Both the position numbers and the translations under genes were made by a program. Under the pieces are notes generated by a model. That model made no database searches. It had not been told where the DNA came from and saw only the letters and a program-made list of their open reading frames with translations. This document shows positions 3,607 through 64,000 of a DNA stretch of 64,000 nucleotides, in pieces; position 1 is the stretch's first letter; every line of letters starts with the position of its first letter. Source of the DNA: Phytophthora quininea (lineage: Eukaryota > Oomycota > Peronosporomycetes > Peronosporales > Peronosporaceae). The DNA is taken from the NCBI GenBank assembly GCA_011947345.1, contig JAAVTG010000581.1, positions 496,001 to 560,000 on the forward strand, given 5' to 3'.

Positions 3607-4052
3607 GTGATCAGAGGAAGAAATTCCGGGCGGGTCTGCTATCGGCGGTTTGGAAGCAAAACATTGAGATGGCAAAGCTGTTTACAGCCAAGTGGTTCAC
3701 GTAAGCGGCTTCTGTCAAATCTGCAACTGGCGGCGCTGCTTCAGTGCGTTGGGATAACTCGGCGTTTTGTGGACCAATGCAACGCTTCCCTTGCAGGAAG
3801 TATTTTGGAAAATTCAGTTAAAAGTGGTTACGTCGAGGTAGTTGAGGTACTTCAGCAAGAGTCATTTGTATGATCGGAATGAGGCTTTCTATACTGCTGC
3901 AACAAGTGGCCAACGGAGACTTACGGAGATTTTGCTCAAGCATCCTTCGTGAGTCAAGAAGACCTTTGGCTAGGCGTCTTGAGGGTAGGAGGAACTTGCC
4001 AGCGACAGCTGCAAATGGCCACGAGTTCTTGTGGAAGAGCGACGTTACGTGA
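3607..4052 (+). pseudogene. Ankyrin-type repeat relic
   Basis: Two overlapping open pieces (3607-3873 and 3870-4052) in different frames contain ankyrin-like helices: SGYVEVVEVL in the first, and AAT-SGQRRLTEILL in a third frame just after it. There is no start or stop of a complete gene. It follows the leucine-rich-repeat-like relic directly and may be the tail of the same old gene. Confidence 0.35.
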
Positions 4053-26581: not shown

Positions 26582-27009
26582 TCATCTTGGGGTGGAAATG
26601 CCTCTTGAATTTTTAGGGTTCTTGAGCTTGTATACTTTCTTGAATTTGCTGTAGAGCAGCCATTTCGGGTCATCACGCGGCAAAGTCTTTGAGTTTGAAC
26701 CCCGGAAGAGCACTTTCGGGGTAGCTCCTTTAGCAACCCCGGCATTGGCGGCAGCTTCCGCACGTAGCATCAAAGGGCGATCGCCCTTCGTCATTGACGG
26801 TAGTGCTCGCTCTTCGTCGTCTTGATTGGCGTGCGTGGAGTTTCGTCCACCGCAGACTCCACCTCTGACGTCCTCAGAAATCGTTGGGAATAATCGGCGC
26901 CTTCTTCCTCTTCTTGAATTGTTGGTGCTGCTTCGAGGTCAACTGCTGCAATGTTGTTGATTGCTGTCATGGTAGCCAAGGTGACAAGACAAGCGAGGCG
27001 TAGCAGCAT
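26582..27009 (-). pseudogene. RxLR effector, family 2 copy 2 (frameshifted)
   Basis: Near-identical to the intact gene at 10590-11018, with signal peptide and RFLR. It has a missing G near 26841, an extra A in a run near 26685 and a four-base instead of five-base C run near 26701. The frame ends after 72 residues. It is separated from its ankyrin partner by LINE 1. The copied flank ends at 27229, where unrelated sequence leading to the transporter gene begins. Confidence 0.85.
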
Positions 27010-27486: not shown

Positions 27487-29081
27487 TTAGTCCTGCTCAT
27501 CTTCCTTCTCCATCTTGCTCGATTGCACCGGAGAGTGCTCAAGCAGGTAGCTTCCATCCGTCGGTTGGTTTTCATCTGCACCCATGGCCAATGAAACAAT
27601 CACCGTCACGATCGGCGGAATAATGAGCGCCACGATGAAGGTGATCATGCTGCTCTGCGAGTAAAGACCCTCGGGCAACACGAACCAGTTAAAGCCGCCG
27701 ACAAATTTGCCTTGCGCAATGACGCCGCAGATGAAGATGGTGACGAGACCCGCAGCACAGCCAGCCAATGCACCAACTCGAGTCGCTGGCTTCCACATGC
27801 ACAGCAGCATCGGCCCGACCGCAGACGAGCACACCAAGTCAGCGATCAGGAACAGGTTCAAAATGTTGTATTGGTGGTAGGCGATCACGACGGCAGGCAC
27901 ATTGAGCAGAGCTACAAGCAACACAGAAAATTAGCATGCCCAACAGTACCGGTCGAATGGATTTAAACTTACCGCAGATGATACGCGCGTGCAGCAAGTT
28001 TAGCTTAGGGAAGACCGCAGTCAGCTCGCCGACAATTCCCAACTGGAGCGAATCCGCCGCACCACTTGACATCATGGCGATGACGATGATGATCAGCACT
28101 TCCCAGCCATGCCCCATGTCCATCAGAATAGCGAAGAAGTACACGCCGTCGGGATACGCCAAGTAGGAAACCATGCCGGCGATAGCGAGCGCCACCGTGA
28201 AGAGGACCATGATGACACAGCAAATGTACACCGCTTTGCGAACGGTGGCGTCGTCGTGGGCAGCAAACACTCGCTGCCAAAAGCTTGTGAAGAAGAGCTC
28301 GTTGGCTGACACAGCGATCACCAGAGTCACGAGCGTCTCGAAGCCATCAACGGTGAAGGCAGCGACGTTGGTCTTCGACCAGGCACCGTCGGGAATGGAG
28401 ACGTGGAAGCACATGGCGACGCACACAGCGGCGACCAAAATCACAGCACCGATGCCTTGCCAGACGTCTGTGGCCAAACTGGCACGCAGACCACCGACCA
28501 AGAGATAGACGTTCGTAAGCAGCACGACCACCAGCAGCGGGACGATCGGATGTGCGTTAGGCGACATCATGACTGTGAGCTGCACCACACACGTCAACTC
28601 AGACGCTAGCGAGATGAACTGGCTGAAGACAGCGATCAGCGCCACGTAGGCCTGCATGACGTAGCCAAAGCGCTTCGAGATGACCTCCGTCATGGTGAGA
28701 TTGTCGCCAATGGCCGACCGCATGTAAGGGCCGGCAAAACCCAAAGCCAACATAGCTGACGCGCACGAGAGGGCGTACCCGATGACGCCCCACGATCCAG
28801 CATCGACTCCAATCTCCGGGAAGGTGAACAGAGCCGACGACCCCATTCCAGCAGCAAAGAAGCACCAGGCTAGACGCAGAGCACTCGTCGAGTTCTTGGC
28901 ACTAAGGAAAAATAATGTTAAGATGAGAAAATATACTGATCATAGCAACATCATTGTGGCCATACCTGACGAAGTTCTTGATGCTGGTGACGTCCATCGT
29001 TCGACTGACGATGACGGCGTAGATGGCCACGGCAGTCAAAGTGGCGATCATGACGCCGTAGGTGACTCCACTTGCTAGCAT
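27487..29081 (-). CDS. Sodium:solute symporter, inferred thiamin transporter (copy S1)
   Basis: Three exons by visible splice sites: 29081-28966, 28901-27973 and 27911-27487. Introns are 64 nt (28902-28965) and 61 nt (27912-27972), both GT-AG. The 489-residue product starts MLASGVTYGVMIATL and has about 12-13 hydrophobic spans, with SSS-family features such as GGLRASLATDVWQG and FWQRVFAAHD. The C-terminal tail is acidic. The SSS family includes DUR3 (urea) and fungal DUR31. The nucleotide leader carries a TPP riboswitch (29229-29324), so the most likely substrate is thiamin or a precursor; that is inference from regulation, not from residues. The gene sits in the plasma membrane if it behaves like its family. 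The frame is intact throughout. Confidence 0.88.
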
Positions 29082-29087
29082 GTTGGG

Positions 29088-29152
29088 CTATAGTTCTCGG
29101 ATGAATCAAATATTAGTCAAGTTGGAACTATGAGAGCAGATTGAACACGTAC
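29088..29152 (-). promoter_or_regulatory. Putative 5'-UTR intron of S1, downstream of the riboswitch
   Basis: On the minus strand, GTACGT at 29152 and CTATAG at 29088 bound 65 nt with a branch-like CTAAT inside, only 6 nt before the start codon. The S3 leader has an equivalent 60-nt candidate. In fungi and algae TPP riboswitches act by choosing leader splice sites, so this is the probable output of the switch. Not proven from sequence alone. Confidence 0.5.
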
Positions 29153-29228
29153 TTTAGATCTGGAGACGACAGCACCGCGGATAGCACATCGAGAGACATC
29201 ACAAACGTCAACACAACAGAAACCACAG

Positions 29229-29324
29229 CAGTCCCTCCGCCGGTATGAACCGGATCAGGTTCTAAGGGTCTAATCTCAGCCGGTCAGCGCATGGAACTCG
29301 TCCATGACTGGCATCGGCACCCTC
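29229..29324 (-). promoter_or_regulatory. TPP riboswitch (THI element) upstream of S1
   Basis: On the minus strand the core follows the TPP aptamer consensus: GAGGGTGCC opening P1/P2, a variable P3 arm, GGCTGAGA (CTGAGA at 29274-29279, pyrimidine-sensing), ACCCTTAGAACCTGATC and then GGTTCATACCGGCGGAGGGA closing (pyrophosphate-sensing helices and P1). It lies 147 nt 5' of the transporter ATG on the same strand. A second copy with compensating differences is at 58497-58593. No tool was run; the match to the conserved bases is by eye. Confidence 0.93.
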
Positions 29325-29852
29325 GCTGGTTGCACGTCAGTCTTTACAAACCCCAACCGGAGGCAAAAAATGGATCAAAGAGAGGAGGGGTAAGTACCGG
29401 AACGGAGACCGTGGGAAGTAGGCTCTTGGTTTGGTTCTTGCGGAGCTCTTGAGTCTCTCGAGACGAATTCGCAAATGAGACTTTCTGCGACTCAGCCAGC
29501 CACACTGGCGGGTGAGATTTGTGCACGCGCTGGAGAGCAACTGGCACCAAGCCCATGTCGACAGTCATAAATTGACCTTTTTCCTACCCTATATGGATGG
29601 CACATCACACTGGTCAACACCTCTAGACGCTTCAACGGCACTCATTGCCTCAAATTTACCACATTAACTTAGCTGTACCTTGGCCGAGCGAGCAATGTAC
29701 AGCGACTCGACTCATGTGATACTGCAAGATCGCGCAAGAAGCTTCCCCACTTGATAGTCAGCATGACAACGACAACCTGTCGCTAGCACTTGTGACACCA
29801 TCCTCATGCAGAGATTACCATGTCGGGCTACAGCACCACGTCCAGCTACACT
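29325..29852. other. Promoter region of S1 up to the duplication boundary
   Basis: No recognised coding sequence. It should contain the transcription start of the S1 transporter transcript, 5' of the riboswitch. It ends abruptly at 29853, where the inverted arm begins. Confidence 0.45.
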
Positions 29853-37958: not shown

Positions 37959-38418
37959 ATGCGACTTCATGTTGTCATCCTATTAGCAACCGCAACACTT
38001 GCTGTGATCGGAGATGCAGGTGCTCGAGCCAACGATGGCGAAATTTACTGTTCCCGATGGCAACGGCGACCGACGATTGCTGAGAGGACACCGGCAAGGA
38101 GGAAGGAGTGGCGATATTAAAATCAACTCGGTCGATGACGAAGAGCGAGCGTTACCTCCCATGGCGACGACTAGTAAGAAGCGGGCGAAAATTGGAGGAG
38201 GGAGGCGAACTGGCGGTCCGCGAGAGATTTACGCCCACGACGTTCTACCGGTGGCTAGGACTCGAAAAATTGCCTCGCAACCACCCGAAATGGCTGATGT
38301 ACAGCAAATTCAAGGAGGCGTACAAGCTAAAGAACCCGAAAAATTCAAGAGATCTTTCAAGCCAAAGAAACCTCGCTTATTGAGACTCAAGATGAACCGC
38401 AAATTCAGGGAATCGTAA
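37959..38418 (+). pseudogene. RxLR effector, family 5 (several frameshifts)
   Basis: Signal peptide MRLHVVILLATATLAVIGDA is in one frame, RRLLRG and VDDEER in a second, and the FYRWLGLEKLPRNHPKW/YSKF module in a third. At least two indels separate them. It is related to family 4 (same DAGA-type signal end, same lysine-rich tail). It lies next to the inverted ankyrin copy A4. Confidence 0.8.
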
Positions 38419-39114
38419 AAGCAGAAAAAGTTTTGAGAAGCACTTAAGACAAGCAACTACAAGTACAGCTATTTCAAACCTCTGAGTATTCTCTGTCATT
38501 CGGTGGATATCACACAAAAAATTAACGCAGTGGGAACTGATAGAGTTTACCTGGAAAAATGAACTTGCGGGTTAAAAATGTCGGGTTATGTTTGCACGAG
38601 CTCACTTGTGCCTTTGTCGCAGTCCTGATCAGTGTTACTACAATTCCATTCGATTTTCTTGAAACTGGTATCGCGTCGTTGACAATGAGAGGCTGTCTAG
38701 ACATCCTCGGCAACCCAACGAGCATCAGTTTGTGTTGACAGTAATGAAAGACAGGTAAATATCCGTAGCAGTGACGTGGGCATTTGCGATTATGGACTAG
38801 ACGGGGATACCGGAGTTGCTGCTATAAAAACTGGGCTTGAAGCTGGACGGGAACGGGATTTTTGTTAGGTTGGAGTTTGTACGGGTATCGGCAAACATTT
38901 TGACGGGGAAGTTGATGTGCAGAATAATTGACTCATCCAGAGGCCTTGCCAATTGTCCTGTCATCCGACTGTAAACCTCGGTGCGGTGCAAGTTGCTTTG
39001 TGATGTGCGCGAAAACTCTATTTGAGCGAGTTCGTTTGACTGGATCGCAGAGATCTCACTTCCAAATTCACGTCAAAGGTGTCAGATATCGACAAATTTG
39101 TTGGCTAGCTTACG
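38419..39114. other. No gene recognised; upstream of transporter copy S2
   Basis: Searched by eye for the TPP aptamer found before S1 and S3; none is present. Similarity to the S1 locus begins only at the start codon (39115), so the riboswitch, leader intron and promoter were not copied or were lost. Confidence 0.6.
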
Positions 39115-40640
39115 ATGTTAGCAAGTGGAGTCACCTACGGCGTCATGATCGCCACGTTGACTGCCGTGGCCATCTACGCCGCCATCGTCAGTCGAACGAC
39201 GGACGTCACCAGCATCAAGGACTTCGTCAGGTATGGCCACAATGATGTTGCTATGATCAGTATATTTTCTCATCTTAACATTATTTTTCCTTAGTGCCAA
39301 GAACTCGACGAGTGCTCTGCGTCTAGCCTGGTGCTTCTTTGCTGCTGGAATGGGGTCGTCGGCTCTGTTCACCTTCCCGGAGATTGGAGTCGATGCTGGA
39401 TCGTGGGGCGTCATCGGGTACGCCCTCTCGTGCGCGTCAGCTATGTTGGCTTTGGGTTTTGCCGGCCCTTACATGCGGTCGGCCATTGGCGACAATCTCA
39501 CCATGACGGAGGTCATCTCGAAGCGCTTTGGCTACGTCATGCAGGCCTACGTGGCGCTGATCGCTGTCTTCAGCCAGTTCATCTCGCTAGCGTCTGAGTT
39601 GACGTGTGTGGTGCAGCTCACAGTCATGATGTCGCCTAACGCATATCCGATCGTCCCGCTGCTGGTGGTCGTGCTGCTTACGAACGTCTATCTCTTGGTC
39701 GGTGGTCTGCGTGCCAGTTTGGCCACAGACGTCTGGCAAGGCATCGGTGCTGTGATTTTGGTCGCCGCTGTGTGCGTCGCCATGTGCTTCCACGTCTCCA
39801 TTCCCGACGGTGCCTGGTCGAAGACCAACGTCGCTGCCTTCACCGTTGATGGCTTCGAGACGCTCGTGATTCTGGTGATCGCTGTGTCAGCCAACGAGCT
39901 CTTCTTCACAAGCTTTTGGCAGCGAGTATTTGCTGCCCACGACGACGCCACCGTTCGCAAAGCGGTGTACATTTGCTGTGTCATCATGGTCCTCTTCACG
40001 GTGGCGCTCGCTATCGCCGGCATGGTTTCCTACTTGGCGTATCCCGATGGCGTGTACTTCTTCGCTATTCTGATGGACATGGGGCATGGCTGGGAAGTGC
40101 TGATCATCATCGTCATCGCCATGATGTCAAGTGGTGCGGCGGATTCGCTCCAGTTGGGAATTGTCGGCGAGCTGACTGCGGTCTTCCCAAGCTAAACTTG
40201 CTGCACGCGCGTATCATCTGCGGTAAGTTTAAATCCATTCGACCGGTACTGTTGGGCATGCTAATTTTCTGTGTTGCTTGTAGCTCTGCTCAATGTGCCT
40301 GCCGTCGTGATCGCCTACCACCAATACAACATTTTGAACCTGTTCCTGATCGCTGACTTGGTGTGCTCGTCTGCGGTCGGGCCGATGCTGCTGTGCATGT
40401 GGAAGCCAGCGACTCGGGTCGGTGCATTGGCTGGCTGTGCTGCGGGTCTCGTCACCATCTTCATCTGCAGCGTCATTATCCAGGGAAATCTGTTCGCGGC
40501 TTCAACTGGTTCGTCGTCCCCGAGGGCTTCTACTCTGAGAGAACAGCATGATCAAGTTCACCGTGGCGCTCATTATTCCGCCGATCACGACGGTGGTAGT
40601 CTCGCTGGCCATGCCTACGACAGAAGCCCAACCGAATGAT
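39115..40640 (+). pseudogene. Sodium:solute symporter copy S2 (broken, no riboswitch)
   Basis: Nearly identical to S1 with the same three-exon layout: exon 1 from 39115, intron about 39231-39294, exon 2 to about 40224, intron to about 40283. A single missing T in exon 2 (about 40188) produces a premature stop at 40193-40195. A second group of changes after 40470 throws the last membrane segments out of frame. Without the leader elements it probably is not regulated like S1 and S3 and is likely dead. Confidence 0.85.
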
Positions 40641-40745
40641 GGCGGCTACCTGCTTGAACATGCCCCGAAATCATCGTCCACGGCGGAAAAAGGTGGGGTC
40701 AGGCCTAAGAGACTCCCTTGAAGACTCCCGGCACCAAGGACGACA

Positions 40746-54190: not shown

Positions 54191-55016
54191 GATTGGGTTG
54201 TTTGGCATATCGTAGGATAACTTGATTGCGAGGATTCAGTTCTGATAGAATATCGCTTTCCTGTAGAGTACTATCGTTAGAATCTAGAGAAACCAGATGA
54301 ACAATGAGTAAGTAGACTGACTACCTGACGCGGTTCACACGTGATCATGGGGTTCGTTCTTGTTATTTAAGCTGGCCTTGTCTCGCGTATTTTACGTGGT
54401 GATTTCTGCGTCGAAAACCCCAGACGGATCTCATTGCGAGCAATCGGCAGCGCTGCTCGCTCCATGTCTGCCCGTGCACATCATGATTCGTACATGAATC
54501 AATACGCCCCATCAACAAAAACCGCAATCAACGATGCCGCTCCGATGTGTACTCGACAAACCCGACCTATTTCGCAATCCGCTCAAGTCAAGCCGTGTGA
54601 TCTCGTAGACCACAATGCGTCTCCATGTTGTCATCCTCGCAGCAGTAGCCGCACTTGCTTTGATCGGAGATGCAGGTGCTCAAGCCAACACTATGGCGAA
54701 GTTTGATCACCATGGTGACAAGGGCGACCGACGATTCCTGAGAGTGGACACTGAGAAAGGAGAAGAGAGCGGCGGCATTAAAACAAACGCGGTCGACGAT
54801 GAAGAGCGAGCGTTGCCTTCCATGGCGACGACCAGTAAGAAAGTGGCGAAAATTGGAGGGAAGCCGGCGAACTGGCGGTCCGCGATGGATATACGCCCAA
54901 GACGTTCTACCGGTGGCTAGGACTCCAAAAATTGCCTCGCAACCACCCGAGATGGCTGGCGTACAGCAAATTCAAAGAAGCGTACAAGCTAAAGAACCCC
55001 AACAAGTTCAAGAGAA

Positions 55017-57862: not shown

Positions 57863-58231
57863 ATGCGTCTTCATATTGTCATCCTCATGGCACTAGCGAC
57901 ACTGTTTGCAAGCGCCGGCGCTGCGGATTTCCCGATCGATGAGAGTGACAAACGATTCCTGAGGGTTAACACCGCGGCCGAAGAGCGAGCGGTGCCTGCA
58001 ATGGCAACAACAATGCATCTGGCGAAAAATCTGGATCGAACTGTCAGCAGCTTGATGCGGCGTGGGGCGACCCCAACGTCGCTGAAGGCCTGGCTGGGGC
58101 TCGCCAGCTTGCCGCGATCGCATCCGAATTGGGCCACCTACAGCAAATTCGTCCAAAAGTTTAAGGAGAACTTCCCTGACAAGTACAACGAGCAGCTGCT
58201 GCTCAAGGTGCTCGGAAAAAGACGTAGATAG
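57863..58231 (+). CDS. RxLR-dEER effector, family 7 (intact)
   Basis: A 122-residue protein: signal peptide MRLHIVILMALATLFASAGA, RFLR at residues 31-34 and AAEER at 38-42. The C-terminal domain carries LKAWLGLASLPRSHPNWATYSKFVQKF in two adjoining parts, matching the module of families 1, 2 and 4-6 and looking like a compact W/Y-type helical unit. The frame is intact. It lies upstream of the riboswitch-controlled transporter S3 on the same strand with 266 bases to the aptamer, but as a separate transcription unit. Confidence 0.92.
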   Translation: MRLHIVILMALATLFASAGAADFPIDESDKRFLRVNTAAEERAVPAMATTMHLAKNLDRTVSSLMRRGATPTSLKAWLGLASLPRSHPNWATYSKFVQKFKENFPDKYNEQLLLKVLGKRRR

Positions 58232-58496
58232 GGATCGCAAAGGCAATGGCAAGCTTCGGCTTGGTGCAAGTGTAGCTCTCGATTGAGTGAGCTCGCCCAT
58301 CGCGGTACCTCGCCTTTTAACAGCCAATCACAACCTCGAATCTGCATGTATCTTGCTTCTAGTATACTGCGCTCCTCTTGACTGGCTCGCGACAAGCTCA
58401 CTTCCGAATTTCGATCAAGAGTGGCAAGCGGTATTTATTATATGTTTTCCAATTGATTTTTGCCTCTGGGGTTGACACCACTGACGCTCAAGCAGC

Positions 58497-58593
58497 GAGG
58501 GTGCCGACGCCAGCCACGGACCAGTTCCGTGCGCTGACCGGCTGAGATGAGACCCTTAGAACCTGATCCGGCTCGTACCGGCGGAGGGACTGC
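58497..58593 (+). promoter_or_regulatory. TPP riboswitch (THI element) upstream of S3
   Basis: The plus strand reads GAGGGTGCC, a P3 arm of different sequence from S1, GGCTGAGA (CTGAGA at 58542-58547), ACCCTTAGAACCTGATCCGG (from 58552), CTCGTACCGG and GCGGAGGGACTG. The conserved TPP aptamer bases are kept while the P3 arm and the GGTTC/GGCTC stem vary, as expected for a selected RNA structure. It ends 150 nt before the S3 start codon. Confidence 0.93.
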
Positions 58594-58674
58594 TGTGACT
58601 TCTTGTTGTTGACGCTTCCTGTGTGTATCTATTTCCCTCAAGACCTGTTCTTCCACTCCCAAGAAAATCTTCAA

Positions 58675-58734
58675 AGTAGGATTTTGTTGTACTTCATGTA
58701 AATAGTTACAGATCTCATCTTATTTATGGTTGTA
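58675..58734 (+). promoter_or_regulatory. Putative 5'-UTR intron of S3
   Basis: GTAGGA at 58675 and TTGTAG at 58734 bound 60 nt ending 9 nt before the ATG. If retained, it adds a start-stop minimal upstream frame (ATG TAA, 58695-58700) and a second upstream ATG (58725) out of frame with the protein. Both would reduce translation. Splicing out would give a clean leader. The S1 leader has a comparable candidate. Confidence 0.5.
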
Positions 58735-58743
58735 GGGACCAAG

Positions 58744-60331
58744 ATGCTCGCAAGCGGAGTGACCTACGGCGTCATGATCGCCACGTTGGTGGCAGTTGCC
58801 ACCTACGCCATCGCCGTCAGTCGACGGATGGAGATCAACAATGTCAAGAACTTTGTCAGGTAAAACTATTTTTTATTAGCATATCTTTTTTACTAAACAT
58901 TTTGATGATAATGCAGCGCCAAGAACTCGACGACTGCTCTACGTCTGGCCTGGTGTTTCTTCTCTGCTGGAATGGGCTCATGGACGCTCTTCTCCTTCCC
59001 TCAGATCGGAGTGGACGCTGGTTCCTGGGGTGTCATTGGTTACACGCTCTCTGGAGTCTGCGGCATGTTGGTGCTGGCCTATGTGGGTCCGTACACTCGG
59101 GCTGCTTTCGGGGACAACGTCACGATGACGGACGTGGTCAACCAGCGCTTCGGCTACGCCATGCAGGTCTACGTGGCGCTCATTGCCGTCTTCTACCAGT
59201 TCATTTCGCTGGCGTCGGAGTTGACGTGCGTTGCACAGTTGACGACCATGATGTCGCCGAATGCCCACCCGATCATCCCAATCTTGGCGGTCGTGCTGCT
59301 CACGAACCTGTACCTTTTGATCGGCGGACTGCGTGCCAGTTTGGCCACGGACGTGTGGCAGGGCATTGGCGTGATCGTGCTGCTTGCTGCAGTTTGTATT
59401 GCCATGTGCTTCCATGTGTCCATTCCTGATGGAGCGTGGTCGAGGACCAATGTGGCTGCGTTCACGACTGCAGGCTTCGAGACGCTCGTGACGCTGGTGA
59501 TCGCCGTGACTGCGTCCAACCTTTTCTTCACGGGCTTCTGGCAGCGTGTGTTTGCAGCATATGACGACGACACCGTTCGCAAGGGCGCCTACTACGCTTG
59601 CTGCATCATTATTCCATTCACAGTGGCGCTTGCGCTGGCTGGCATGGTTTCGTACCTTGCATACCCGGATGGCGACTTGTTCTTCGCGATCCTAATGGAC
59701 ATGGGTCACGGCTGGGAAGTGCTCATTGTCATTGTCATCGCGATGCTGGCGAGTGGCGTGAGCGACTCGATCCAGATCGGGATTGCTGGTGAACTTACGG
59801 CGTGCTTCCCAAAGTTGAACTTGCTGTACGCGCGTATTATTTGCGGTAAGTTCACCTGAGTTTCCTCCTCGTTGCTGTTGTGTAGTTGTTAACGGATGGA
59901 ATGTTATTCCTGCAGCTCTGCTTAACGTCCCGGCCGTCGTGATCGCCTACCACCAATACGATATCTTGAACCTGTTCTTGATCGCTGATCTACTGTGCAC
60001 GGCCGCCGTCGGCCCGATGCTTCTCGGCGCGTGGAAGGGTGCGACGCGTACGGGCGCTCTTGCTGGAAGCGCTGCCGGCCTGATCACTATCTTCATTTGC
60101 GGCGTCATCGCGCAAGGCAAGTTTGTTGGCGGTTTCAACTGGTTCGTCCTGCCAGAGGGTCTCTACTCGCAGAACAGCATGATCACGTTCATCGTGACGC
60201 TCATCATCCCTCCGCTTGTGACTGTGATCGTTTCGCTGTTTACGCGCAGTGAGCTTCCGACGGATACCAGCTACCTGCTTGAGCACTCCCCGTCCAGGCG
60301 ATCAATGGGCAGAAAGATTGATCACGCTTAA
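58744..60331 (+). CDS. Sodium:solute symporter, inferred thiamin transporter (copy S3)
   Basis: Exons 58744-58859, 58917-59845 and 59916-60331; introns of 57 and 70 nt at the same positions as in S1. The 486-residue protein starts MLASGVTYGVMIATLVAV and is clearly paralogous to S1, but more divergent (for example RRMEINNVKNFV against RTMDVTSIKNFV), so the S1/S3 duplication is older than S1/S2. Hydrophobic spans and SSS-family segments (GGLRASLATDVWQG; FWQRVFAAYD; GGFNWFVLPEG) are intact. Regulation by the upstream TPP riboswitch points to uptake of thiamin or a precursor across the plasma membrane; Phytophthora species are known to need external thiamin. Substrate not proven. Confidence 0.9.
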
Positions 60332-60436: not shown

Positions 60437-63400
60437 TCACTCGGTTTCACACAACTGCGCGTTGTTATCCATCAGGAAGCGCACCACATCGCCGTGTGCG
60501 TTTTGCATGGCAAATAGTAGCGGTGTCCAGCCTTTTGCATTTGCCAAGTTCACTGTTGCCTTGTGTTCAACCAAAAGTCTAGCAATGCCGAGATTGCCTG
60601 CAAAGCAAGCTTTACTGAGAGACGTATCTCCAGTTCTGCACTGAGTATCAACATTGGCACCACGCTGTAGCAGTATCAGCACCGCAGCTTCATGGCCTTC
60701 CTCCACCGCCAGCAAGAGCGGCGAATTCCGTCCATTATCGAAAATATCAGTGAGAGCGCCACGGTCGAGGAGAAAACGCATCATGCCAAGATTACACTGT
60801 TGTGCAGTCAGATGCAGAGCTGTCTTGCCGTTCTTGGCGTGTACGTTGACGTTGGCCCCTCGTTCGATAAGGAGGTCGCAAATCGCCTCGTTGCCTTCGG
60901 TGGCAGCAAATAATAAGGCGGTCCATCCAGCGTCATCTGCTTTGTGAATGTCTGCGTTAAAAGCTAAGAGAAGTCGAGCGACGTTGATCTGGTTGTGCTT
61001 TACCGCCTCGTGAAGTGGTGTCAATCCAGATCTTGTTGCTGAGTCCACTGGCGCGTCAACGTTCAGCAGGAACGTCACGACAGCTTCGTGACCCCCGCGA
61101 GCAGCTAACAACAACGCAGTGCATCCCTCCTTATCTCGTGTTTCGATACCGGTACAATATTCACTCGTCAAAGCAGCTCGAACTCTATCCAGATCACCAT
61201 GCGAGGCAGCGTTTAGAAGAGATGCCTCGGTTTCGTGAAGTGCTCGTTGGTATTCTTTGATTAGGTTTGCAGTGTGCTTGTGATTTTGTGCAATTGCGGC
61301 ATCAACTGCTGTCCGTCCTTCATTATTCTGTAAGTTTGTGTCGCTCCGGTATTCCAGTAAGAGAGACACAATATCTTCATGACCTCGCTCAGCAGCGATA
61401 AAAGTGGAGTTCGACTAGCAACGTCAGCCAAATCTACCGTAGCACCCTCTTCCAAAAGTGCTTTGACCACGTCCGTGTGTCCTGCTCGGCTGCTACGCTC
61501 AACGATGTTCGTCTCGCGTGATTCCGTACGTCAACGGTTAGTTTTCCTTCTTCATCAAATAAATCTGTAAGCCCGCTTTCATCTAGGTCGTATCCATCGC
61601 AAAAGCTTCCAAGGGTCAATAAATATCGGACGAGCTCTGAGTGGCCACGTCGTGCTGCTTTGTGTAAAGCACAATCGTCTTCATCATCCATCGAATCGAT
61701 CTTAGCTCCACGATAAACTAGAGCCATGAGAATCTCTTTGTATCCTCCTTCTGCTGCGAAAAGTAGCGGAGTCCAGCATTTCTTGTTCGTCAAGTCGACA
61801 GCGGCACCGCAATCGAGAAGAAGCTGAACAATATCCACGTGACCGAGATGAACAGCGATATTTAGAGCAGTATCTCCGTCGTTATTCTGCGCATTGATGT
61901 CAGCATTCTTGCTGAGCAACAGGTGAACCGTTTCCTCGTGGTTATTAGCAATAGCTAGAGTAAGTGGCGTATCTCCGTTTGCGTTTCGACTCGAGACCCG
62001 TCCACCTTTTTCCAAAGCAGCTTTTACTCTGTCCACATTGCCTTGAGATGCGCTCTCCAACACGATATTATTTATCTGGAAAAGCTCACGCTCTCGTTGA
62101 TGAAGAAGGGCGATAGCAACGGCATTTTCCTGCTGCTGCGCGATATCGAACGCAGTGAATCCCTTGCCGCATGTCGTGTACAAATCAGCGTGACCATCAA
62201 GAAGAAGGCGCATTGCCTCGATATGTCCACAACCAACTGCATACATGAGAGCTGTCTTCCCCAAACTGTCTCGCAAGTCGACGTCAGCACCTTCGTCGAG
62301 CAACAAAGCTAAGATACCACATAAATTAGCTTTGGCTGCAGCAACTAAAGCCGTCTCGCCAGTTTCATCTGCAATATCGATATTTGCATTCCACTCAAGG
62401 AGAAGTTGAACCATCTCGAGATTTTCGTTAAGAATGGCCTTCATCAACAGAGGCGTTTTCCCTTCATCGACCATATTCGATGAAGCTCCACGTTGAAGAA
62501 GCAATGAAGCGACAGAGCAGTCTCCTGTATCCACAGCGAAACGCAGAGCTGTATCTCCCCTTATATTGCTTGCATTAACGTCTGCGTGATGATCAAGAAG
62601 GAGAGAAACAGCCTCTTTCCATCCACCTTTGGCAGCATAAATCAATGGAGTATTTCCCAACACGTCATGTGATTCAGCTTCCGCACCGTGGTCGAGCAGA
62701 CACGTCATCATACTGGTATGGCCGTGAGTTGCTGCATATGCGATAGCAGTCGACCCATCTGCGTTGGTAGCAGCAACATTTGCATTTCTGGATAATAGAA
62801 GATGAACTATTTCTTCGAGGCCTTGCTCACACGCTCTCATGAGCGGTGTCTCCTTTTATATTCATTAACTCGATTGAAGCACCATCATCCAACAGCAAGG
62901 ATGCAATCTTACAACGCCCTGAGTGCAGCGAGTAAAACAAAGCTGTTTCACCGAGTGCATCTTGAGCATTTATGTCTATCTCACCATCGAGCAGGAGTCG
63001 TATCATTTCTTCTGAGGATTCTCTTGCAGCAATCATCAGTGGTGTCGTTTGATTTCGATCACACAAGTCCGCCGAGGCATTAAGTTCTAGCAACAATCGA
63101 ACAGCGCCAATATTGTTGCTACCAATTGCCACTGATAACGCCGTCTGGCCAGTATCATTTTGGGCGTCAATGGCTCCGTTGTGCTGAGTTAGTAAATGAA
63201 CAATGTCGTTGTGTCCCCTTTGATAGCAAACATTAGTGGTGTCCAATACGTTGATCCCACCAGATCAGTTTTGGCACGGTAATGGAGAAGCACATGAGCA
63301 ATATCCAAGTGTCCTTCTTGTGATGCGATGCTCAGTGCAGTCCGTCCTGTAATATCTTGCGCGTTCACATCTGCTCCGCAGTCCAACAGCAGTTGCACCA

Positions 63401-64000
63401 TATTCACGCGGTTTCCCGCCACAGCCAGTAAGAGAGGCGTTCTCTTGTTGATATCTTCGACCTCGACGTCGCCACCTTTCTTCAAAGCAGCCTTCACTTC
63501 TTTTATGCTACCTTCTGACGCTCCTTGATGCAGCATCCTTGTTGTTGCTTCTTGTTTGCCATGATATGCATCAAACACAGCAACGACGTCAAGTTGAACT
63601 TTTGTCTTGCCCAATCTTGGGCCGTAAATCCATTGCCGCATTTGATATCTGCTCTGGCACCTTCATCAAGTAACAAACTTACAGCGTCAACATGGCCTTT
63701 AGAGGCAGCGTGTATGAGAGCAGTCTTTCCAGTATCATCGCGTAGATCGATGTCAACCCCACGATCGATGAGTACACGGATGACGCCACATGAGCCAGCT
63801 TGAGCAGCATGCATGAGGACGGTTTCTCCACATAGACTTCGTGCCGTGATGATAGCTTTCCACTTGAGTAGAAGACGAACCATCGCCTCGTTGCCATCAA
63901 GCGCTGCTTTCATCAAAGGTGCGCGTTGGTGTTGGTGATCTTCAATGGCATCAACGGCAGCCCCACGTTGGAGAAGTAAGGATGCAATCTCAAATCGGTT
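60437..64000 (-). CDS. Long ankyrin-repeat protein (partial, 5' end outside window)
   Basis: About 3.5 kb of nearly continuous canonical 33-residue ankyrin repeats (G-x-TAL-x-x-AA, G-x-x-x-x-V-x-LLL), more than 30 in number, ending with HGDVVRFLMDNNAQLCETE and a stop at 60437. Longer linker helices break the array at about 63545 (KQEATTRMLHQGASEG), 62080 (RERELFQINNIVLESASQG) and 61240 (RALHETEASLLNAASHG), suggesting larger modules. Open segments are 60437-61369, 61434-62840, 62827-63246, 63189-63641 and 63503-63916. The breaks between them need single-base shifts, at least one in a T run (near 61400). It differs from the A1-A4 family, which has 28-residue repeats. Role: protein scaffold, partner unknown. 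Confidence 0.7.

What the first reader, a model, noticed from the sequence alone, without database searches (positions are those of the whole stretch)
58497..60331. TPP riboswitch controlling a solute-symporter gene in an oomycete (S3)
Seen: an aptamer core matching the TPP consensus (GGGTGC, CTGAGA, ACCTGATC, GGAGGGA) 150 nt before the start codon of an SSS-family transporter. Known: eukaryotic TPP riboswitches occur in fungi, plants and algae, and the fungal DUR31 transporters under such switches import thiamin; Phytophthora are thiamin auxotrophs. Inference: this is a feedback-regulated thiamin importer, which would give a function to an unassigned transporter family and links pathogen nutrition to an RNA sensor.
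Basis: partly seen in the sequence, partly recalled or inferred. Interest (0 to 1): 0.9.

Follow-up and report, generated by a model that had tools for sequence, protein, structure and literature searches.

The report
Vitamin-B1 riboswitch on oomycete B1 importer
A water mould related to the potato-blight group carries RNA sensors for vitamin B1 in front of two genes for a membrane transporter that very probably imports B1; this kind of arrangement has been published before, but here an extra copy of the transporter gene lacks the sensor.

Summary
Rfam's TPP model matches 58488-58607 (58.0 bits, cut-off 54.3, E 9e-9), 148 nt before the ATG of a 486-aa symporter. The assembly gave four hits, read as two genes on two haplotypes.

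"Thiamin importer" is well supported. Bacterial relatives, about one-third identical, have a TPP match at their gene start in 11 of 16 loci scanned, 9 above cut-off. The genome has thiamin pyrophosphokinase but no detected ThiC, THI5, ThiE or ThiM and no convincing Thi4. A diatom SSSP symporter is needed for thiamine uptake (PMC9544697).

It is not new in kind: oomycete TPP riboswitches on a sodium-symporter group were published in 2018 (PMC5882874). Added here: a link to ThiV/SSSP; a riboswitch-free paralogue, intact on one haplotype and broken on the other; and a leader with two candidate introns flanking the aptamer, one acceptor inside P1. Ligand binding, splicing and transport are untested; in one diatom such aptamers did not respond to thiamine.

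The parts
58488..58607 (+). TPP riboswitch aptamer of symporter S3 (P1 58493-58497 with 58591-58595; extended P3)
   Evidence: RF00059, 58.0 bits, E 9.1e-9; allele identical 120/120
58744..60331 (+). S3, sodium:solute symporter, 486 aa; exons 58744-58859, 58917-59845, 59916-60331
   Evidence: gene model; TIGR00813 E 4e-11; homologues; model of an orthologue has the SSS fold
58398..58404 (+). candidate initiator TCACTTC (oomycete INR YCAYTYY)
   Evidence: pattern, definition from PMC3599244 (passages)
58431..58495 (+). candidate leader intron A, 65 nt: donor GTATTT, branch hexamer CTGACG 58481-58486, acceptor CAG 58493-58495 inside aptamer P1
   Evidence: CTGACG is the commonest branch hexamer given for P. 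ramorum and P. sojae (PMC2483917); CTGACG+YAG in 4.4% of shuffles, the looser CTRAYK+YAG in 32%. Prediction
58676..58735 (+). candidate leader intron B, 60 nt: donor GTAGGA, acceptor TAG, 8 nt before the ATG
   Evidence: GTACGT..TAG at the matching place in S1. Prediction
58431..58735 (+). candidate long intron (donor A to acceptor B, 305 nt) that would remove the aptamer and all upstream ATGs after the initiator
   Evidence: Prediction
58547..58612 (+). upstream ORF of 21 codons and stop, starting inside the aptamer
29214..29333 (-). second TPP riboswitch aptamer, of paralogue S1
   Evidence: RF00059, 61.4 bits, E 1.3e-9
27487..29081 (-). S1, paralogous symporter, 489 aa, two CDS introns
29326..29397 (-). 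candidate leader intron A of S1, 72 nt (GTACTT .. CTGACG .. CAG in P1)
   Evidence: Prediction
29088..29152 (-). candidate leader intron B of S1, 65 nt (GTACGT .. TAG)
   Evidence: Prediction
39115..40708 (+). S2, third symporter copy without aptamer; reading frame broken here (stops after 338 residues), intact (489 aa) on the other haplotype; end approximate
   Evidence: no TPP match up to E 10 in window 38000-39400 or around the C99 copy, L106
39056..39062 (+). candidate initiator TCACTTC of S2, 59 nt before its ATG, inside a 33-nt stretch like the S3 promoter
   Evidence: 26/33, E 0.004

Best explanation
S3 and its paralogue S1 are importers of intact thiamin, of the SSSP/ThiV kind of sodium:solute symporters, repressed by TPP through an aptamer in the 5' leader. 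When TPP is scarce, the leader is spliced from donor A (58431) to acceptor B (58735); this removes the aptamer and every upstream ATG after the initiator, and the symporter is made. When TPP is plentiful, the folded aptamer disfavours that long splice, a leader with the aptamer and its upstream ORFs is kept, and translation falls. Shown by computation: aptamer, gene, orthologues, bacterial association, pathway gaps. Inferred: ligand binding, cargo, sign of the response and splice choice. The confidence given is for 'TPP-repressed thiamin importer'; for the splice scheme I hold about 0.4 (lowered from 0.45 after one search showed that most algal 5'-UTR cases have no known spliceforms).
For: Aptamer. 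Relatives with riboswitch: 11 of 16 bacterial loci scanned, out of 80 fetched, have a TPP match at the start of the gene (9 above the gathering score; 2 just below it at E 1.2e-7 and 4.7e-7); a crude core pattern of my own is present upstream in 73 of 80 (no null run). Pathway: TPK best match 123 bits; ThiE, NMT1/THI5, ThiC, ThiM none at E<=0.001; Thi4 only stretches of 38-42 profile positions, 1 of 7 over the cut-off. All upstream ATGs after the candidate initiator lie between donor A and acceptor B: 4 of 4 in S3, 5 of 5 in S1. P. megakarya orthologue P0006 is annotated with an N-terminus that reads like the translated 3' half of the aptamer (MKPLEPDPVHTGGGTA; S3 upstream ORF MRPLEPDPARTGGGTA). 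Biallelic PtSSSP knock-out cells showed no thiamine uptake (PMC9544697, passages).
Against: Five of 16 bacterial loci, all Marinobacter, show no TPP match up to E 1. SAR11 ThiV is the likely HMP carrier of a strain that cannot use thiamin (PMC11452348, passages), so cargo differs within the family. In P. tricornutum predicted TPP aptamers did not respond to thiamine. Most algal SSSP and SSSF riboswitches in 5' UTRs sit on single-exon genes without apparent spliceforms (PMC4260697, passages). No pairing of P4/P5 with donor B as in the fungal model: rank 112 of 195 windows in S3, 234 of 246 in S1. Donors GTAYTT and GTAGGA do not fit the oomycete consensus GTRNGT. Pfam lists no family for S3 or S1 at E<=1. 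L5 departs from UAAU. No RNA data.
Confidence: 0.78

Rival explanations
1. The aptamer is a cassette exon whose own 3' splice site (CAG 58493-58495) is the first three bases of P1. TPP closes P1 and hides the acceptor; splicing there also destroys P1, so the sensor works only on the pre-mRNA.
For: CTGACG..CAG is the single match of its kind in each leader, at the same place before P1 in S1 and S3; chance 4.4% and 6.6% of 2000 shuffles for CTGACG+YAG, 1.3% and 0.5% for donor+branch+acceptor; CTGACG is the top Phytophthora branch hexamer.
Against: With the looser branch pattern CTRAYK chance is 32% and 35%. CAG is constrained by P1 anyway. Hiding acceptor A would favour the long splice at high TPP, the wrong sign for an importer unless inclusion is the productive form. 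The donor pattern was set after seeing the sequence. No transcript data.
Confidence: 0.2
2. The aptamer is conserved but does not act as a switch, as reported for P. tricornutum, or it acts without splicing.
For: P. tricornutum result (PMC9544697, passages); most algal 5'-UTR cases lack known spliceforms; L5 departs from the consensus; two family copies (S2, S4) show no aptamer.
Against: Aptamer kept at 105/120 between paralogues whose flanks fell to 51% and 63% of aligned positions, with helix-preserving changes; here it lies in the 5' leader, in diatoms in 3' UTRs; T. pseudonana SSSP transcript fell by about one third with thiamine.
Confidence: 0.13
3. The symporter carries a precursor (HMP, aminopyrimidine) rather than thiamin.
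For: SAR11 ThiV and HMP uptake (PMC11452348, passages).
Against: No ThiE or ThiM match at E<=0.001 in the assembly, so HMP could not be joined to a thiazole.
Confidence: 0.1
4. It is a true orthologue of fungal DUR31 (SSSQ).
For: SSSQ and SSSP are related (PMC4260697, section 17 read).
Against: None of the 120 homologues listed (of 203) bears a fungal name. PMC5882874 treats the sodium-symporter group as unique to oomycetes and apart from the urea-transporter group (passages). No DUR31 sequence was compared here.
Confidence: 0.08

Closest known systems
TPP riboswitches on sodium-symporter genes of oomycetes (Mukherjee et al. 2018, PMC5882874; passages and part 1 of section 7 seen)
   Same: Same lineage, same RNA class, same kind of gene; TPP riboswitches in 15 of 17 oomycetes; splicing control proposed
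   Different: The main text has no 'SSSP', 'ThiV' or 'paralog'; their oomycete table (Supplementary Data S2) could not be read
SSSP / ThiV symporters with TPP riboswitches (McRose et al. 2014, PMC4260697, sections 12 and 17 and passages; Llavero-Pasquina et al. 2022, PMC9544697, passages; PMC11452348, passages)
   Same: Symporter of the SSS superfamily under a TPP aptamer; P. tricornutum SSSP needed for thiamine uptake; Phytophthora riboswitches named in 2014
   Different: Diatom aptamers lie in 3' UTRs; SAR11 protein is tied to HMP; algal 5'-UTR cases are mostly single-exon genes, S3 and S1 have introns. Which gene the 2014 Phytophthora riboswitches belong to stands in a supplementary table that could not be read
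Fungal DUR31/NCU01977 (Donovan et al. 2018, PMC5997356; passages seen)
   Same: SSS-superfamily thiamin transporter with a TPP riboswitch that governs splicing
   Different: Orthology not tested here; long-range pairing element not sought here
Neurospora Type I 5'-leader splicing switch (described in PMC5882874, section 7 part 1)
   Same: Aptamer in the 5' leader, upstream ORFs, alternative donors, acceptor just before the coding exon
   Different: No P4/P5 pairing to the proximal donor found; a candidate acceptor lies inside P1

Membership tests
TPP riboswitch (RF00059) | covariance score above the curated cut-off over the whole model | tested here: met
   58.0 and 61.4 bits vs 54.3
TPP riboswitch (RF00059) | ligand-contact motifs CUGAGA, ACCUGAU, GGAGGGA and helices P1-P5 | tested here: met
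   (roles of the motifs recalled)
TPP riboswitch (RF00059) | L5 motif UAAU | tested here: inconclusive
   S1 UUCAU, S3 CUCGU; of the 11 bacterial aptamers printed some also have UUCAU, UUCGU or UUGAU
TPP riboswitch (RF00059) | binds TPP and changes expression | not testable with these tools
   needs in-line probing and RNA work
Sodium:solute symporter superfamily | SSS fold | tested here: met
   model of orthologue P0005, pLDDT 87.7; best PDB matches CHT1, SGLT2, SiaT; family profile matches SGLT1 at E 1.2e-14
Sodium:solute symporter superfamily | profile match above curated cut-off | tested here: inconclusive
   S3 TIGR00813 42.6 bits vs 184; Pfam none for S3, S1; 18 of 22 members of A1 match PF00474 at E<=0.001
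SSSP/ThiV | bacterial relatives under TPP riboswitches | tested here: met
   11 of 16 loci scanned, 9 above cut-off
SSSP/ThiV | falls in a clade with algal SSSP and SAR11 ThiV | not tested
   no such named sequences were in hand; the tree holds 27 oomycete and 8 bacterial rows, joined by long branches
SSSP/ThiV | carries thiamin or a precursor | not testable with these tools
   uptake assay needed
DUR31/SSSQ | orthology with fungal DUR31 | not tested
   no DUR31 sequence compared; 120 of 203 hits listed, none with a fungal name
Type I splicing riboswitch | alternative donors, upstream ORF, acceptor just before the coding exon | tested here: inconclusive
   candidate sites at matching places in S1 and S3, no transcripts
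Type I splicing riboswitch | aptamer P4/P5 pairs with the proximal donor (recalled for Neurospora NMT1) | tested here: not met
   rank 112 of 195 and 234 of 246 windows

The most novel reading that the evidence does not exclude
The aptamer is a cassette exon that holds its own 3' splice site within P1, so TPP gates acceptor choice directly and splicing destroys the sensor; and the species keeps a parallel, riboswitch-free copy (S2), homogenised with S1 by gene conversion that stops at the ATG, intact on one haplotype and broken on the other, so that thiamin import is part-regulated and part-constitutive.
Probability: 0.15. Interest if true: 0.65.

Novelty: new member of a known kind. Interest (0 to 1): 0.4.

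Why it matters
This genome, like P. infestans in a published model, seems unable to make thiamin and must import it; that model could not tie transporters to specific substrates (PMC6747730, passages). S3, S1 and their orthologues are good candidates for the importer. The riboswitch and no-riboswitch paralogues on one contig are a ready natural comparison of the RNA's effect. The diatom result leaves open whether stramenopile TPP aptamers work at all, and this 5'-leader case is a clean place to ask.

Tried and rejected
Fungal-type sequestration of the proximal donor by P4/P5: no support. Donor A pairs well with P4/P5 in S1 (rank 7 of 246) but not in S3 (117 of 195); the acceptor-A window ranks 5 of 195 in S3 and 78 of 246 in S1 but overlaps the aptamer itself; neither was used. 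Aptamer in front of S2: none up to E 10 on either haplotype. Aptamer near S4 on contig C613: none up to E 1 in L021 and E 10 in L109. Aptamers near three other PF00474 matches (C942, C419, C171; L016, L017, L019): none up to E 1 in those 3.2-4.0-kb loci. More proteins annotated through the aptamer: only P0006 itself, of 231 candidates. MFE folding as evidence: uninformative. Thi4 hits: short stretches at the profile's start, taken as a shared dinucleotide-binding fold (my reading), not a Thi4 gene; this profile also rings in all 14 control genomes. The PF00474 search of the own genome listed S4 but not S1-S3; the protein search found all four. The TPP search of the own genome scored 49 of 2995 candidates, so four is a lower bound. 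Phosphomethylpyrimidine kinase was not searched.

Literature: among the papers listed I saw none that by title, abstract start or passages seen tests an oomycete thiamin transporter or this riboswitch; one search listed 12 of 29 papers, and subscription papers are mostly not held.

Full report
Observation. The 87.2-Mb assembly gives 4 matches at E<=0.001: these two, and two on contig C99; 49 of 2995 first-look candidates were scored. C99 is largely collinear with the window, at 92-98% identity in the long blocks between C99:24642 and 59717, with gaps and rearranged blocks, so I read it as the other haplotype; the haploid count is then two riboswitches.

Genes. Joining exons over two CDS introns gives S3 (486 aa, 58744-60331 +), S1 (489 aa, 27487-29081 -) and S2 (39115 on, +). 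S2 is broken in the window (338 residues to the first stop) but intact, 489 aa, on C99. A fourth homologue, S4, lies on C613:318233-319783, 69-80% identical by tblastn piece, with frame changes between pieces. Neither S2 nor S4 has a TPP match nearby. Within a haplotype S1 and S2 are 98.0-100% alike in 250-nt bins over the first 1250 nt from the ATG. In the four bins from 250 to 1250 they are more alike (window 98.8-100%, C99 100%) than the two alleles of S1 are (98.0-99.6%); in the first bin this holds on C99 (99.6% vs 99.2%) but not in the window (98.0%). Upstream of the ATG they align at only 37-49%. That is what gene conversion stopping at the ATG would give. S2 still has a 33-nt stretch like the S3 core promoter (26/33, E 0.004) with an initiator-like TCACTTC 59 nt before its ATG.

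Aptamer quality. S1 and S3 aptamers are 105/120 identical; post-aptamer leader 64 of 126 and upstream leader 71 of 112 aligned positions. Alleles: 120/120 in S3, 120/120 plus one inserted base in S1. Of 29 pairs in P1-P5 and the P3 extension, 27 are unchanged and 2 change while staying paired (one C-G to U-A, one C-G to U-G). L5 is UUCAU in S1 and CUCGU in S3; similar L5 loops occur among the 11 bacterial aptamers printed. MFE z-scores are -0.73 and -0.24, so the case rests on the covariance model and conservation.

Protein family. Of 203 homologues, 120 were listed: oomycetes first (Phytophthora, Peronospora, Plasmopara, Bremia, Globisporangium, Pythium, Lagenidium), then proteins of about 30-39% identity whose given organism names, where they have one, are bacterial. 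Only the 7998 candidates sharing most words were scored. In a tree of 35 rows (27 oomycete, 8 bacterial) S3 groups with S1/S2 (support 85/97) among Phytophthora sequences; the join to bacteria has very long branches and is not evidence for a donor. AlphaFold2 of orthologue P0005 (pLDDT 87.7) matches CHT1, SGLT2, SiaT and DUR3. Pfam lists nothing for S3 or S1 at E<=1, while 18 of 22 members of the oomycete-bacterial alignment A1 match PF00474.

Bacterial test. A scan of GTDB genomes gave 312 relatives; the best 80 loci, mostly Halomonadaceae with some Marinobacter, were kept. I gave 16 of the 80 to Rfam: 9 have a TPP match above cut-off directly at the gene start, 2 more lie just under the cut-off (53.4 and 51.0 bits), and 5, all Marinobacter, have none up to E 1. 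A crude hand-made core pattern was found upstream in 73 of 80; the 7 misses are 5 Marinobacter and 2 Modicisalibacter, one of which has the 53.4-bit match. So a family at about one-third identity is tied to TPP sensing in another domain of life. This is the SSSP/ThiV picture of McRose et al. (PMC4260697, sections 12 and 17 read, further passages seen).

Need for thiamin. Own-genome searches: TPK, two matches, best 123 bits; no ThiE, NMT1/THI5, ThiC or HK/ThiM at E<=0.001; Thi4 gives 7 short matches of 38-42 profile positions, one over the cut-off. With no ThiE, HMP or thiazole could not be used, which favours intact thiamin as the cargo. The searches are exon by exon and the assembly may be incomplete.

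Leader. After the initiator-like TCACTTC (58398) come a donor-like GTATTT (58431), the hexamer CTGACG (58481), CAG in P1 (58493-58495), the aptamer, a donor-like GTAGGA (58676) and TAG (58733-58735) 8 nt before the ATG. S1 has counterparts at the matching places (GTACTT, CTGACG, CAG, GTACGT, TAG), although its initiator is only a relaxed match (TCATT). CTGACG is the commonest branch hexamer reported for P. ramorum and P. sojae (PMC2483917, passages); oomycete junctions are given as GTRNGT..YAG (PMC2751781, passage), which GTACGT fits and GTAYTT and GTAGGA do not. In 2000 shuffles of each leader CTGACG+YAG occurs in 4.4% (S3) and 6.6% (S1); with the looser CTRAYK in 32% and 35%; with the GTAYTT donor added 1.3% and 0.5%; the donor pattern was set after seeing the sequence. 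All upstream ATGs after the initiator (4 in S3, 5 in S1) lie between donor A and acceptor B; one of the four in S3 (58726) is in frame with the main ORF and open into it. P. megakarya P0006 is annotated with an N-terminus that reads like the translated aptamer, and the stretch from there to the main ATG is about 65 nt shorter than in S3 (149 nt, against 28 residues; my count), as if intron B were removed; this is a gene model, not a transcript.

Mechanism. Most likely the long splice (A to B) makes the productive mRNA when TPP is low and the aptamer favours retention of the upstream-ORF leader when TPP is high. The specific fungal pairing was looked for and not found. Most algal 5'-UTR SSSP cases are single-exon genes without known spliceforms (PMC4260697, passages), which counts against assuming splicing. 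Burial of the P1 acceptor is an alternative whose simplest form has the wrong sign.

Novelty. Mukherjee et al. report TPP riboswitches in 15 oomycetes, including a symporter group widespread in oomycetes (PMC5882874, passages and part 1 of section 7). McRose et al. name Phytophthora riboswitches; the gene they sit on is in a supplementary table I could not read, so the SSSP assignment may already be there. The finding is a new member of a known kind. What I did not see in print is the riboswitch-free paralogue, the leader anatomy, and an explicit ThiV/SSSP assignment of the oomycete group.

Noticed in passing
window 29214-29333 (-): Second TPP riboswitch, in front of paralogue S1.
   Followed up: yes
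window 39115-40708 (+); C99:38223-39798: Riboswitch-free symporter copy S2, broken in the window and intact on the other haplotype; coding part nearly identical to S1 up to the ATG, as after gene conversion.
   Followed up: yes
G000:C613:318233-319783 (L109): Fourth homologue S4 with frame changes and no TPP aptamer; thiamin pyrophosphokinase lies on the same contig at 447462-447836.
   Followed up: partly
window 57863-58231 (+), 54615-54920 (+), about 26780-27008 (-): ORFs that look like RxLR effectors (hydrophobic start, RFLR, in one an EER nearby; motif recalled) sit beside the symporter genes.
   Followed up: no
window 9000-55000: Dense near-identical direct and inverted repeats of hundreds of bases to 1.8 kb among which the symporter copies lie.
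   Followed up: no
window 60437-64000 (-): Long ankyrin-repeat-like ORFs just after S3 (by eye).
   Followed up: no
L023, L027, L030, L035, L056, L062, L064, about 3985-4003: In these seven Halomonadaceae loci GGAGGAAG at the aptamer's 3' side ends 6 nt before the ATG and may itself be the ribosome-binding site.
   Followed up: no
window 58482-58486 and 58610-58614; S1 likewise: TGACG stands on both sides of the aptamer in S1 and S3 and probably after it in P. megakarya; unexplained.
   Followed up: no
P0006 (P. megakarya): Public annotation translates the riboswitch as protein (MKPLEPDPVHTGGGTA...), perhaps a gene-model artefact.
   Followed up: partly
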